Below are positions 48,903 to 59,699 of a stretch of DNA of 64,000 bases, piece by piece. Source of the DNA: Tubulanus polymorphus (Eukaryota > Nemertea > Palaeonemertea > Tubulaniformes > Tubulanidae); NCBI RefSeq assembly GCF_964204645.1, contig NC_134026.1, positions 2,108,001-2,172,000 on the forward strand, given 5' to 3'. The position numbers and the translations under genes were made by a program. Each line of letters opens with the position of its first letter. Positions within the stretch are counted from its first letter, which is position 1. Under the pieces are notes generated by a model. That model was not told where the DNA came from, did not search any database, and saw nothing but the letters and a program-made list of their open reading frames with translations.

Positions 48903-51900
48903 ATGCGCGGAATATTGCTGTGCGGTCTAATCGGACTGCTTACTGTTCCCAGTTTCTGGGTATTTGGAGAATATCGTGATGAACGTAATAATCAAGTGAA
49001 CGCTGGGCAAAAGGTAAAACCTACAGCGAGAAAACGTTACTTTATACATACTCAACATTTTCCCGATGATTCATGTCTCCTGGGGATGTTTTTTCGTTCT
49101 ACAGATTTGTTTTTCACCAACTTCCCCACACTTATGAGTAAAATTTATTCCCCTCACAAAATGAAACCGATACTAATTTAACAGGTATTTCAATTTTATT
49201 CGATTTATGAAATGATTCAATGTATAAAGTGATGGAAGATATCGTTCTAGGTGAGAACGGTTGATGACGAAGGTTTCAGCGAGGAACAACAGAAGTCGGC
49301 TAGTCATATGTTCACAAATGGAATCGAAATCAACAATGAAGAGTCAGCGATTGTAAGTAAGGCTGAGGTGAGTCTTATGAGCGAACTACATGTATTTACT
49401 TCATAATTTGCTTGGACACTTATAGGATATGTTTGATCATCGAGGAGATCGCGATGAAGCCGTTGAAGATATCATCGTTCAATTGGAAAATCATGTGATG
49501 AAACAGAATGGAAAACTCACCGATGAAGAACAGAAGAAAATCATCGATACAGCATTGGGTGTCGTTGACGGAAAAATAACAGTAGGTTTTGTAAAAAGTA
49601 GACAATTTATATTTTTGTTTATCTCTTCAAGACTAATTATTTCATACACTCTATTAAATAAAAGGGAACATAAGGTGCATATGTTAATGTCTAATCAAGA
49701 AATATCAATGAATGTTGTTTAATAGAATTAATGTTGCATTTATTTTTGTTTCATGATAGATTGATGAAGCATTTGAGAAAATCAAGGTTCCGATGAGAAT
49801 AACTCGTAGGACGGTTTCAGCTAACGAGCATAGCAGAGCGAAACGAAAGATTCTCAAAAACAAAAACGATTTATGGGAGAAAGGAATTGTTCCTTATCGC
49901 TGGCATTTAGATCCAAGATACAAATCGAGTAAGTTCCAAAAATCGAAATCTTTTTTTTTCAATTTTCGAACAACAATGTGTGTATCGATCCGCTAGTTCT
50001 ATAAATTCGAGTAAATTACAGGCAACGGCACGAGGGAAAATTGTTTAAGAGTGATGCAATACTACGCGCGCATTTCGTGTCTGACTTTTCCTAAATATGA
50101 CAAACAGTTACAAGCAAAATATGACCTCAGAAAAGATGGTTCTTTGTTGATTGGCGATTACGGAGGAGGGTAAGAATGAAATATATACCGATAATAGCAG
50201 TAATACAAAAAGTAGGAAATGACTCGAATGTCTCTTGTTTCCAGAGCGTGTTACTCCTATGTTGGAAAACATAACAATCCTAACGGCCAGCAAATTTCAT
50301 CTTGCGTGAGTTGAAAGTTTAACTATAAGATTTATTTGACATGTATCTTAATTATCATATTCCATCGAATTTATGCCGATGTTTGTATAAAACCTATACG
50401 TTCAATGAAATATCGGTGATCAGTGATATTTCTATACTTAAAGGCTTTCACACACGAATTAGGACATGCCTTAGGACTCCATCATGAACACCAACGAGCT
50501 GACCGCGATGGTTACTTGAATATATACCCCGATAACGCCTCGCCGAGTAAGCAATGTTTTAATTTAACTCACTGTTATCGAAATAAGTTCGGAAAAAATA
50601 TTTAGCGGTTGAGGTTTAATGATGTCTTGCCCAAAATGTCAGGAAATAATGCTCAATCTTTTTTCTTATAATCCAGAATATCGTGGTACTACTGGGTTGA
50701 TAAGTGCAACTGGTTATGACTACAGTGTCCCATATGACTATTCATCAGTCATGCATTACGGTCTAACGGTAACCATTGTTCATAATGTATCGTTTATGTA
50801 CATTTCTATATTGCATTTCAATAGTATTTATGTGATTTCACGTATAACCTATCACTTCGATATAACAAAATTCGATGTTACGAAATTTCTCAGGACGCTT
50901 CATCTCAAAGTGATCAAAATCTTGTTTGAAATTGTATCGAAAGAGGCTATGTAACTATTATAATTGATGAATTGATGATATTCCTGAATGACGTTTCAGA
51001 CATTTTCAAGAAATGGTAGACTTGTTTATGACGTAAAAGATAAATCGGAGAGGTTTCTAATGGGAAGCCGTGGACTCAGTTTCTATGACATCATGACACT
51101 GAATAAAGGTTACGAATGCACAGGTATAAGGAAAGCCATTTAGTACTAAACGAATTTGTTCTGTAGCACACACTCGATTCACGCACTCTAATTTCTGATT
51201 TCAGCTTTGAAATGTCCGGGCAAAAAATTTGATTGTCAGAACGGCGGTTTCCCGGCATTCATTGATCAGAAATGCCAGTGCTATTGCCCTCCTGGACTAG
51301 GTGGTGAGAAGTGCGAAAAAACTTTCAAGCCTGGTAAGGAAATGTATGAAATGTATGAATCTAATGTCTCAAATGTCCTGGACATAATTGCACATGACCT
51401 ACATTTCAGCGGCCGCATCCTCGTGGCCCGGGGGCAGTTACGGTTTTCTCATGCCTTCAAGTGGATGTCCCACAAATGGGAATTTCCATCAAGGAACCAG
51501 GGAACACACAACCCCTACAGCGAGTCGAATCTACGATAAGCCCATTTCATTTTCCACGAACCTGATAAACGGTAAAAAAGTGAAAGAACACTTTTGTATG
51601 ATGAAGAATCAACCTGATAATGGAAATACGTGGCCAAGAGGGAAATATTGTCTATATAAATTAGGAACTTGTCCAGAAGGTAAACATTGAAATCTAGTTT
51701 GTGAGAATTTATGTATTCCTGTATTCAGTTGAAATTTGTATTTGTATTTGAAGGTTTTCTCGTTGGTTCGTTGACGTTTGACGACGTGGATGTGGACAAC
51801 AATACGAAATCGGGCGTATTACCGGACGGTGATTACAATCAGGGAACTAAAATCGAATATTGCTGCCGTAATGATGGAGATCAAAATACAGTCATACATT

Positions 51901-57900: not shown

Positions 57901-59699
57901 CCTATTAGATATGGCAATAGTAGTGATTCTCACTTTCTTTATGAAGTATTATCTTTCATTCGTTTACGGCTTCATTTTAGCTGAATTCAAAGATTCCTGT
58001 TCACTCCCTTATGTTCATTTCAACACGACTTTGGCAACGACACCGAAAGCTGAATTTAATGTTGGAGAAACAGTGAATTATGTATGTTCCGATGGATATC
58101 AACTCGTTTCCAAACAAGGATTAAACCGCACGTGTTTGGGCAAAAACGTTTGGACGAAGACTGCTCCAAAATGCATCTGTGAGTTGAAAAGTTTATTCTT
58201 ATTTCATAATAGCTCAGAATGTGTTTTGAATTCATTAAATGTATTTCTTTTAGATTCCACTGATATCTATGATGAATATGGGTCGTTAGGAAACACAAGA
58301 GAACAAGATGGCGGAAAATGGGTTCATATGTTTTCGGTGAACCAATATGCAATCAAACACAAGTCTAAGATTACCCAGTGGAGTTTCCAGAGCAAAGTAA
58401 ACACAACGATCTACCTTCAAGTTTGGCGAGCTGATCCTAGGAATGATAAAGCGTACGTGCTGATTGGCCAGAATAAACTTGACGTCACGGCGGGCATGAA
58501 CACGTTCGACGTGGCCCCTGAAGATCAGATAGTGGCTCTACCTGGTGATCGTATAGCTCAGTTTGCTTACAAACAGGCTGCGGTCAGATACATGCCATGT
58601 TGGAGCGGACACGACTATCTAGTTACTCGTTATACGGAGGAAAAAATGAATGTCGGAATCGAATTGAAATATTCGAAAGGGACCTGGTATACTTGCCGTC
58701 AATACCGTCTGAAGTTTCTGGCAATGAGACAACCGCTTGATAGAATTGAAAAGGGTTGGTATCTTAACTTTGATAAACTGATTCAATTAATAGCATAGGT
58801 TATGAAATAGATTGTTTAAGTGGCTAAAGAGTATTGTTTTATCGTACGTACGTTTCACAGTCGTGCTCGGAAATTTTACGAAATTGTGTAGAACTCCAAC
58901 GATTCACGAATCGACATCACTGACCCCGATGAAAGACATATACTCGGCTAACAGCAATGTGTCATATTCGTGTAACAGTCCTGATGCTCAAATTGCTTCT
59001 GGAAGCAACCTTAGAACATGTATGGGAAGTGACCTGTGGACGTCGCAGTCTCCGATATGCAAATGTAAGTAATAACTTATTCGCGTTTCTTACCCGAAAT
59101 GTCCTACTAGTTTGATAATGAGCGCGATACTACTTTTCTTACTAAAAAAAACTTCAATACCAAGTGCTTTAATCTGCTTTCGTTTACGGCTCCGATTTTT
59201 ACTTTTAGTCACCAATGATATCGTTGATGTGTATGGCATCAGTCAACAAGCAAATATGTATGACGGCTCCGGTTGGATCCATATCTTCAATCCGGATGTA
59301 TACACTATCAAACACAAGTCGAGAATCTCGCAATGGAGGTTTTATAGCCGAAAAGACACCGAAGTATTCCTGCAAGTTTGGCGACCCGATCCTCAAGAAC
59401 CGAAGAAATTTACTTTAATCGGCCAGAACAAACTGTCAGGCATAAAAGCGGGAGAGAATACATTTAACGTGACAAAAGCTGATCAGATATTGGCGCTACC
59501 CGGAGATCGTATCGGGCAATACTCAATCAACCATCCAGGAGCTGTTGTTTGGCAACCATGTGGTGGTGGTAATAATTACCTCGTGTTGTCTAACAGGGCC
59601 CTATCTATACCTATATCGTTCGAGGGAAAATTTGTGTTTGGTGGCTGGTATAGTTGTCGTCGTTTCCTTGTCAAGGTTACTGCCAACAGGGTACCGTGA
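48903..59699 (+). CDS. Secreted astacin-ApeC-CUB-kringle-ShKT-sushi-CTLD mosaic protease, 35 exons
   Basis: Exons: 48903-49013, 49251-49367, 49426-49581, 49760-49928, 50022-50169, 50245-50305, 50444-50546, 50677-50768, 51000-51123, 51205-51333, 51410-51679, 51754-51963, 52094-52237, 52324-52433, 52549-52670, 52744-52871, 53011-53143, 53239-53363, 53480-53608, 53725-54061, 54143-54363, 54459-54581, 54750-55025, 55312-55539, 55666-56157, 56236-56424, 56513-56707, 56797-57078, 57169-57273, 57362-57518, 57590-57843, 57981-58178, 58254-58754, 58861-59064, 59209-59699. All phases fit; 2277 residues. Signal 1-22; propeptide to a RAKR furin site (154-157); astacin 159-360 with [12 protein letters not shown] (258-269) and Met-turn SVMHY (312-316); EGF 364-400; ApeC 411-611; CUB 613-731; kringles 735-815, 1095-1179 and 1555-1641; ShKT 819-857 and 1050-1087; sushi 866-903, 1183-1255, 1424-1481, 1817-1878 and 2054-2113; CTLDs 904-1042, 1487-1676 (split) and 1678-1810; module X 1257-1419, 1881-2046 and 2115-2277. 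Most module borders are phase 1. No membrane anchor. The exon 33 donor (GTTGGT) is weak; without it the protein ends at 58798 (2060 residues). Confidence 0.88.
51410..52237 (+). other. ApeC (apextrin C-terminal) module, exons 11-13
   Basis: Landmarks in order: WPGGSYGF and GCP near the start, [51 protein letters not shown]-type [15 protein letters not shown] and a final FCYY. The paired CC and flanking cysteines match the eight-cysteine ApeC pattern. ApeC proteins are reported in invertebrates as secreted or intracellular microbe-binding factors, with peptidoglycan binding shown in amphioxus. The DDED-type acidic patch reads DDVDVDNN here. Confidence 0.8.
55611..55645 (+). repeat. (CATAT)7 microsatellite in intron 24 of the mosaic gene
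   Basis: Seven perfect CATAT units about 20 bases before the acceptor of the exon encoding X1. Length variation here could affect splicing. Confidence 0.95.
55666..56157 (+). other. Module X, copy 1 (single phase 1-1 exon)
   Basis: 164 residues following a sushi exon. Shares ILEW, YLQVWE, LVGQNK and a C-terminal DCRNY-type strand with copies 2 and 3, but is the most diverged: its loop after LVGQNK is shorter and the LPGDRI block reads VKKGYF. An Arg-rich segment ([10 protein letters not shown]) near the start may be a cleavage site. Alternating hydrophobic strands suggest a beta-sandwich. Confidence 0.7.
56513..57273 (+). other. C-type lectin domain interrupted by a kringle (exons 27-29)
   Basis: Exon 27 encodes the N-terminal half of a CTLD (CPKNW, DGSCF, A-x3-C, through SWVSRVAG). 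Exon 28 encodes a complete kringle ([24 protein letters not shown]). Exon 29 encodes the C-terminal CTLD end (C-x15-C-x6-C, LLYPLCER). All three exons are phase 1-1. The kringle replaces the CTLD long-loop region. Confidence 0.7.
58254..58754 (+). other. Module X, copy 2 (single exon)
   Basis: 167 residues after a sushi exon. Motifs [34 protein letters not shown] and YTCRQY align one-for-one with copy 3. Its 3' splice donor is weak, and read-through gives a stop at 58798. Confidence 0.75.
59209..59699 (+). other. Module X, copy 3 (terminal exon)
   Basis: 162 residues after a sushi exon, ending the protein. Motifs [34 protein letters not shown] and YSCRRF. Closest to copy 2. Confidence 0.78.

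What the first reader, a model, noticed from the sequence alone, without database searches (positions are those of the whole stretch)
48903..59699. Astacin protease fused to ApeC and some 18 further extracellular modules
Seen: 35 exons whose splice phases all agree give one 2277-residue open frame with an intact astacin zinc site (HExxHxxGxxHE, Met-turn) followed by EGF, ApeC, CUB, kringle, ShKT, sushi, CTLD and an unassigned module. Known: astacins are often followed by EGF, CUB or ShKT; ApeC proteins are linked to microbial recognition in invertebrates. I know of no described protein joining astacin with ApeC, kringles and C-type lectin domains. Inference: a secreted protease targeted by carbohydrate- or peptidoglycan-binding modules, plausibly in immunity or matrix remodelling.
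Basis: partly seen in the sequence, partly recalled or inferred. Interest (0 to 1): 0.92.

Follow-up and report, generated by a model that had tools for sequence, protein, structure and literature searches.

The report
Giant astacin–ApeC multi-module secreted protease
An invertebrate animal gene encodes a very large secreted protein-cutting enzyme joined to many binding modules; the combination is real, but its core is already described from limpet foot mucus, and what is new is that relatives of it occur in different animal phyla and that this genome holds at least seven such genes.

Summary
35 exons at 48903-59699 (+) join into one 2277-residue frame with an intact astacin zinc site and Pfam support for astacin, ApeC, CUB, three kringles, sushi, C-type lectin and ShK. 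The weakest link is the junction to the last two exons. That no such protein is described is wrong: limpet P-vulgata_14 (PMC7333891), found by proteomics in pedal mucus, has M12A, ApeC, CUB, kringle, sushi x2, C-type lectin-like and ShKT and was proposed to be antibacterial. Uncharacterised database relatives exist in Nucella, oysters and Lineus. New here: (1) at least seven astacin-ApeC genes in this genome, zinc site kept in 7 of 7, with differing matches downstream; (2) the core, or its first five domains, occurs in molluscs and a nemertean, against printed statements that ApeC proteins lack orthologs between phyla; (3) an annelid and a metagenomic relative lack ApeC between EGF and CUB, where here it is a phase-1 cassette; (4) the unassigned module is a predicted beta-sandwich. 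Most likely a furin-activated surface or mucus protease held on microbes or matrix. Function is inferred.

The parts
48800..48805 (+). TATAAA box about 100 nt upstream of the start codon
   Evidence: pattern scan; promoter role inferred
48903..49928 (+). exons 1-4: signal peptide, propeptide, furin-type RAKR (49835-49846) and start of the astacin domain
   Evidence: only hydropathy windows over 1.6 start at aa 2-5; RxKR also precedes the astacin domain of P0109, P0111 and P0112
49847..51123 (+). astacin catalytic domain, exons 4-9; zinc site [12 protein letters not shown] 50453-50488, Met-turn SVMHY 50745-50759
   Evidence: PF01400 105.5 bits; motifs
51205..51333 (+). EGF-like, exon 10 (phase 1-1)
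   Evidence: alignment to relatives; no Pfam EGF match above cut-off
51410..52237 (+). ApeC domain, exons 11-13 (phase 1-1 cassette), eight cysteines
   Evidence: PF16977 155.6 bits; cysteines; phases
52324..52871 (+). CUB, exons 14-16
   Evidence: PF00431 68.2 bits
53011..53363 (+). kringle 1, exons 17-18
   Evidence: PF00051 59 bits
53480..53608 (+). ShKT 1, exon 19
   Evidence: alignment to paralog exons; no Pfam match
53725..54363 (+). sushi 1 and C-type lectin domain 1, exons 20-21
   Evidence: Lectin_C 32.2 bits; this piece has two Sushi stretches, 51.7 bits together
54459..54581 (+). ShKT 2, exon 22
   Evidence: PF01549 22.5 bits
54750..55025 (+). kringle 2, exon 23; not recovered at this place in any of the six paralogs and absent from Nucella and the oysters
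   Evidence: PF00051 82.1 bits
55312..55539 (+). sushi 2, exon 24
   Evidence: best Sushi stretch of its piece
55666..56157 (+). unassigned module a (beta-sandwich), exon 25
   Evidence: no Pfam match; model (pLDDT 69, pTM 0.70)
56236..56424 (+). sushi 3, exon 26
   Evidence: 20.3 bits, just under the 20.7 cut-off
56513..56707 (+). exon 27, apparently the first half of a C-type lectin domain only
   Evidence: weak lectin-like match (UL45, 19.1 bits, cut-off 27); half-domain reading by eye; next intron is 89 nt
56797..57078 (+). kringle 3, exon 28
   Evidence: PF00051 68.2 bits
57169..57273 (+). exon 29, cysteine-bearing, possible ShKT remnant
   Evidence: no Pfam match; by eye
57362..57843 (+). 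C-type lectin domain, exons 30-31
   Evidence: PF00059 66.3 bits
57981..58178 (+). sushi 4, exon 32
   Evidence: PF00084 38.2 bits
58254..58754 (+). unassigned module b, exon 33; weak donor at its end
   Evidence: 46% identical to exon 35; donor score
58861..59064 (+). sushi 5, exon 34; weak acceptor, inclusion uncertain
   Evidence: 19.1 bits, under cut-off; acceptor
59209..59699 (+). unassigned module c and stop codon, exon 35
   Evidence: model (pLDDT 76, pTM 0.76)
59704..59709 (+). AATAAA poly(A) signal just after the stop

Best explanation
The gene encodes a secreted zymogen of about 260 kDa. It enters the secretory pathway by its signal peptide. A furin-type convertase cuts after RAKR, which frees the astacin N-terminus; the active protease then acts where its C-terminal modules hold it. 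ApeC (a peptidoglycan binder in the short proteins tested by others) and the lectin-like modules tether it to microbial surfaces or glycans; kringle, CUB and sushi modules bind protein partners or substrates. It most likely works in mucus or at body surfaces as a defence protease. Shown by sequence: architecture, intact catalytic and RxKR motifs, relation to a known protein kind, at least seven genes. Shown elsewhere: a limpet protein of the same kind is present in pedal mucus. Inferred: activity, targets, defence role.
For: Intact 2277-aa frame; zinc site, Met-turn, RxKR and eight ApeC cysteines, and no other strongly hydrophobic stretch than the signal peptide. HExxHxxGxxHE in 7 of 7 genes of this genome; HExxHxxxxxHE in 6 of 6 database relatives examined, one of them (Nucella) with A for G. 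Limpet P-vulgata_14, same kinds of module, found by proteomics in bulk pedal mucus and proposed as antibacterial. ApeC binds peptidoglycan in amphioxus and mollusc short-form proteins (PMC9585378, abstract and passages). A shared core with differing downstream matches fits recognition of varied targets. The unassigned module is predicted lectin-like in fold.
Against: No expression, activity or binding data for this gene. Published peptidoglycan binding is for short-form ApeC proteins, not astacin-linked ones. By eye, neither complete C-type lectin domain carries the full calcium/sugar motif set (motifs recalled; residues), so sugar binding there is doubtful. Oyster work instead links the ApeC and astacin families to larval attachment (PMC10225672 passages). 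The Met-turn methionine is Leu in 1 of 7 genes here and in the Lineus entry. Tail boundaries of the paralogs are not proven.
Confidence: 0.55

Rival explanations
1. Matrix or adhesive-processing protease: the modules hold it on extracellular matrix, mucus gel or attachment secretions, and it processes structural proteins as tolloid-like astacins do.
For: EGF, CUB, kringle and sushi modules are typical of matrix proteins (recalled); oyster ApeC and astacin families track larval attachment (PMC10225672 passages); the limpet member lies in adhesive mucus.
Against: Kang et al. sort P-vulgata_14 with defence rather than adhesion proteins; ApeC has a tested microbial ligand in other proteins.
Confidence: 0.3
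2. The 35-exon frame is two genes, or the last one or two module pairs are not part of the transcript.
For: Weak splice sites at the exon 33/34 junction and an in-frame stop at 58798; the Lineus entry stops after kringle 1; AATAAA or ATTAAA also occurs in introns 3, 17, 21, 26 and 32.
Against: Oyster and Nucella entries run from astacin to the C-terminal modules in one chain and the limpet protein carries the same kinds of module; these entries are gene predictions except the limpet one. Core modules lie in the same order at five other loci of this genome and, as far as the fetched stretch reaches, at a sixth. No AATAAA or ATTAAA lies in intron 33 and one follows the exon 35 stop. The Lineus entry begins with an unrelated MADF domain and looks misassembled.
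Confidence: 0.12
3. Secreted defensive or predatory toxin component, as has been suggested for astacins in nemertean mucus.
For: Astacin-like proteins occur in nemertean mucus proteomes (PMC11768458 passages); the seven genes group with the Lineus catalytic domain (93/84).
Against: The words kringle and ApeC do not occur in the main text of that paper; relatives occur in oysters and a snail; the organism here is not identified.
Confidence: 0.06

Closest known systems
P-vulgata_14 (Patella vulgata; Kang et al. 2020, PMC7333891)
   Same: M12A peptidase, ApeC, CUB, kringle, sushi x2, C-type lectin-like and ShKT in one protein, 1113 aa without a start codon in the contig; predicted secreted and found in mucus
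   Different: Shorter; one kringle listed; its sequence was not held here, so no alignment was made
Oyster LOC133174938 (Saccostrea echinata, P0111) and LOC105334113 isoform X2 (Crassostrea gigas, P0110)
   Same: astacin, ApeC, CUB, kringle and sushi by Pfam; EGF, ShKT, CTLD and the unassigned module by alignment; same order, about 30% identical
   Different: End after the first unassigned module; no kringle 2; the C. gigas model starts inside the astacin domain
Nucella lapillus ACOMHN_006937 (P0109)
   Same: Same core, 2185 aa, 31% identical over aa 149-1087
   Different: Lacks kringle 2; tail is a row of about six unassigned modules instead of kringle/CTLD/sushi; zinc motif has A for G
Lineus longissimus blastula protease 10-like (P0001)
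   Same: astacin-EGF-ApeC-CUB-kringle, 36% identical over aa 153-818
   Different: Model ends after kringle 1 and begins with an unrelated MADF domain
Owenia fusiformis P0112 and metagenomic P0115
   Same: astacin, CUB and kringle by Pfam, EGF and ShKT by alignment
   Different: No ApeC between EGF and CUB
Apextrins (MACPF-ApeC) and short-form ApeC proteins
   Same: ApeC domain with eight cysteines
   Different: No protease; in this genome 6 of 11 ApeC loci without astacin run through the position where the astacin-linked ApeC matches end

Membership tests
Astacin (M12A) peptidases | HExxHxxGxxHE zinc site, Met-turn and Pfam PF01400 above cut-off | tested here: met
Astacin (M12A) peptidases | proteolytic activity | not testable with these tools
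   needs recombinant protein
ApeC-containing proteins | ApeC domain with eight conserved cysteines (PMC8361754) | tested here: met
   PF16977 155.6 bits; 8 of 8 cysteines shared with 4 other ApeC domains
ApeC-containing proteins | peptidoglycan binding | not testable with these tools
   shown only for short forms
P-vulgata_14-like astacin-ApeC proteins | module set M12A, ApeC, CUB, kringle, sushi, CTLD, ShKT | tested here: met
   against the published list
P-vulgata_14-like astacin-ApeC proteins | sequence relation to P-vulgata_14 itself | not tested
   its sequence was not held; relation rests on oyster and Nucella proteins
P-vulgata_14-like astacin-ApeC proteins | catalytic domains form one clade apart from other astacins | tested here: inconclusive
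   97/94 branch parts 15 other astacins from the 12 family rows plus P0035; P0035 joins Owenia by a flagged long-branch join, and the mollusc rows do not join the window's genes in the drawn tree
P-vulgata_14-like astacin-ApeC proteins | astacin-linked ApeC domains form one clade | tested here: inconclusive
   tree needs 4 changes and is poorly resolved; one clade not rejected, p-AU 0.187
Lectin-like beta-sandwich (Cwp84 type) for the unassigned module | fold match | tested here: inconclusive

The most novel reading that the evidence does not exclude
This is an ApeC family with true orthologs across phyla (Mollusca, Nemertea and this animal), contrary to print: an ancient lophotrochozoan mucus protease into which ApeC was inserted as an exon cassette, and which in this lineage has multiplied into genes that keep one protease-ApeC core and shuffle kringle, sushi, C-type lectin and a new lectin-like module in the tail, so that one enzyme is aimed at many microbial or matrix surfaces.
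Probability: 0.3. Interest if true: 0.65.

Novelty: new member of a known kind. Interest (0 to 1): 0.42.

Why it matters
Two ApeC papers state that no orthologs are shared between phyla; this family is a testable counter-example. The presence or absence of the ApeC cassette in otherwise collinear proteins gives a natural comparison of a protease with and without a peptidoglycan-binding type of domain. The core-plus-variable-tail gene family is a candidate for diversified surface defence, and the unassigned module is a recurring extracellular domain that matched no Pfam family here.

Tried and rejected
Rejected: that the architecture is undescribed. Set aside as main reading: two fused genes. 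The ApeC tree did not resolve whether astacin-linked ApeC domains have one origin. The locus at C2:18.55M (L034; 26.9 bits, scraps of 14.2 and 12.3 bits) was left out of that tree. The catalytic tree used 16 of the 108 hits as comparison rows, chosen by me; the row for C5:6.21M is under half filled. In one search the exon finder accepted only exons with the model's phases in the model's order, so agreement of phases there is by construction; one exon 6 for C5:6.21M is a scoring artefact (score 2434) and is not counted; several exons score low, such as exon 20 at C11:7.60M. Sequence search of module a against the PDB gave no match; Pfam at E up to 10 gave one sub-cut-off match (DUF5709, 13.5 bits) among four module copies from relatives. 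The first structure job was weaker than the second. No other family was listed for the module; that excludes none. The phylum of the window's animal was not determined; the seven genes group with Lineus (93/84), which suggests but does not show a nemertean or a near relative. Downstream modules of the paralogs are tblastn matches; [quoted passage not shown]

Paper searches for the joint architecture: ApeC+astacin, ApeC or apextrin, ApeC-containing proteins, astacin+kringle+ShK, LOC105334113, nemertea+astacin, astacin+apextrin, PF16977+PF01400, ApeC+kringle, P-vulgata_14. The limpet paper writes peptidase_M12A, so the searches with astacin missed it; it appeared and was read. Seen of papers: PMC7333891, passages and the whole of section 3.3; PMC9585378, passages and its phylogeny section; passages only of PMC8361754, PMC9848320, PMC10225672, PMC10855680, PMC8878817, PMC4284660 and PMC11768458. 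Li et al. 2021 (ApeC survey) was seen only as a citation.
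Full report
Observation. Exons 1-35 at 48903-59699 give 6834 nt, 2277 aa and a stop, with all 34 introns GT-AG and all phases agreeing. The start codon follows an in-frame stop, a TATAAA lies at 48800 and an AATAAA at 59704. Scanned in eight pieces, Pfam finds astacin, ApeC, CUB, three kringles, two C-type lectin domains, one ShK and sushi in two pieces (three stretches) above cut-off, with two more sushi just below. The zinc site, Met-turn, an RAKR furin-type site before the catalytic domain and eight ApeC cysteines are present; apart from the signal peptide no 19-residue window is strongly hydrophobic. 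Exon 27 looks like half a C-type lectin domain and exon 29 is unclear. The exon 33/34 junction has the lowest summed splice-site score of the 34, so the last 232 residues are the least certain part.

One gene or two. A Nucella lapillus protein of 2185 aa (P0109) aligns collinearly over aa 149-1087 and again over a sushi-module stretch; a Saccostrea protein (P0111) does the same. Both are database gene models. A limpet transcript with mucus peptides carries the same kinds of module in one chain. In this genome the core modules lie in the same order at other loci.

Family in this genome. The window lies on a 31.9 Mb contig of a 267.8 Mb assembly. A search for ApeC gave 34 exon matches (such counts are lower bounds), which I sorted into 18 loci, one of them weak. 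Astacin lies beside ApeC in 7 of these 18: the window gene, C2:29.98M, C11:7.60M, C11:7.62M, C5:6.21M, C2:3.82M and C6:20.24M. In the 7.5-10 kb fetched around each of the other 11 no astacin domain was seen; a weak hit beside one of them reads more like another metalloprotease. Core modules found at the paralogs are astacin, EGF, ApeC, CUB, kringle, ShKT, sushi, CTLD, ShKT, sushi and the unassigned module; single modules were missed at some loci, and at C6:20.24M the fetched stretch stops at kringle 1. Of the 22 exons sought (4-25), 20, 21, 19, 17, 19 and 12 were recovered in the six paralogs, one artefact not counted; the finder demanded the model's phases and order, so that agreement is not independent. 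Kringle 2 (exon 23) was recovered in none of the six and is absent from Nucella and the oysters, so it looks like an addition in the window gene. HExxHxxGxxHE is kept in 7 of 7; the Met-turn methionine in 6 of 7, with Leu at C6:20.24M. Downstream, tblastn matches differ: mainly kringles and sushi at C2:29.98M, kringles with C-type lectin domains and sushi at C2:3.82M, little at C5:6.21M; transcript limits there are unknown.

Relatives elsewhere. Three protein searches were run: proteins bearing both astacin and ApeC were 1 of 108 hits, 1 of 1 and 3 of 36, together Nucella, two oysters and Lineus longissimus. The searches reach only proteins of similar length that share short words, so others may be missed. 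An Owenia entry (P0112) and a metagenomic one (P0115) have astacin, EGF, CUB, kringle and ShKT without ApeC. In the window gene ApeC occupies exons 11-13, bounded by phase-1 introns, between a phase-1 EGF exon and a phase-1 CUB unit, so gain or loss as an exon cassette is a plain reading. The ApeC profile matches of the six paralogs break at position 160-166 in 6 of 6; of 11 other ApeC loci, 6 run through it and 5 end earlier, at 147-149.

Trees. The catalytic-domain tree (28 rows) groups all seven genes together (93/85) and with Lineus (93/84). A 97/94 branch parts 15 other astacins from the 12 family rows plus one Saccostrea protein, P0035, whose join to Owenia is flagged as long-branch. Nucella, Saccostrea and Owenia do not join the window's genes in the drawn tree, so the family is not a clean clade there. 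The ApeC tree is mostly unresolved: the label astacin-linked needs 4 changes, fewer than shuffles (mean 7.7; 5 of 500 as low); one clade is not rejected, p-AU 0.187. Cross-phylum orthology rests on shared architecture and collinear alignment, with the catalytic tree in partial support; it is probable rather than proven. It runs against the statements in PMC9585378 and PMC8361754 that ApeC proteins have no orthologs between phyla. [quoted passage not shown] their composition is in a figure not held here and may well be this family.

What is known. Kang et al. 2020 (PMC7333891) report P-vulgata_14, 1113 aa without a start codon, from bulk pedal mucus of the limpet: peptidase_M12A, ApeC, CUB, kringle, sushi x2, C-type lectin-like, ShKT. 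They found no reliable homologs beyond hypothetical proteins, note that its ShKT lacks the dyad needed for channel block, and propose an antibacterial role. The 2023 astacin review lists kringle, sushi, C-type lectin and ShKT among astacin partner domains; neither ApeC nor apextrin occurs in its main text. The protein here is therefore a large new member of a described kind.

Mechanism. Most likely a furin-activated secreted metalloprotease held by its tail on microbes or mucus and matrix, acting in surface defence (0.55); a matrix or adhesive-processing role is the main rival (0.3). Activity, ligands and expression are untested.

Noticed in passing
window 60043-63491, minus strand: Eight open frames, each with an ShK domain above the Pfam cut-off (8 of 8 given), convergent with the gene studied; probably one or more ShKT-repeat genes.
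   Followed up: partly
window aa 857 (exon 19) and aa 1269 (exon 25) of the model: Two further RxRR sites (RSRR, RPRR) between modules could allow a second cleavage that releases the tail; not seen in the 5 exon-19 and 4 exon-25 copies recovered from paralogs.
   Followed up: partly
G000 C2: 13 of the 17 well-supported ApeC loci, and 3 of the 7 astacin-ApeC genes, lie on contig C2.
   Followed up: no
G000 C11:7.60M and 7.62M: Two closely similar astacin-ApeC genes in opposite orientation, their ApeC exons about 15 kb apart; looks like a recent inverted duplication.
   Followed up: partly
G000 C3:10.888M, C3:10.892M, C3:7.378M, C3:7.382M, C11:11.117M, C5:2.848M: Weaker relatives of the unassigned module outside the astacin-ApeC genes.
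   Followed up: no
P0001 (Lineus longissimus): The database model begins with a MADF domain fused to the astacin, probably an annotation chimera.
   Followed up: no
window 2467-3354 (+): Open frame with DUF4200 (104.9 bits).
   Followed up: no
window 22252-22713 (+) and 47043-47500 (both strands): Repetitive open frames: an RTEAVED-type repeat and a Pro-rich/Arg-Gly-rich repeat.
   Followed up: no
window 11156-11229 (-): tRNA-Trp (CCA) gene.
   Followed up: no
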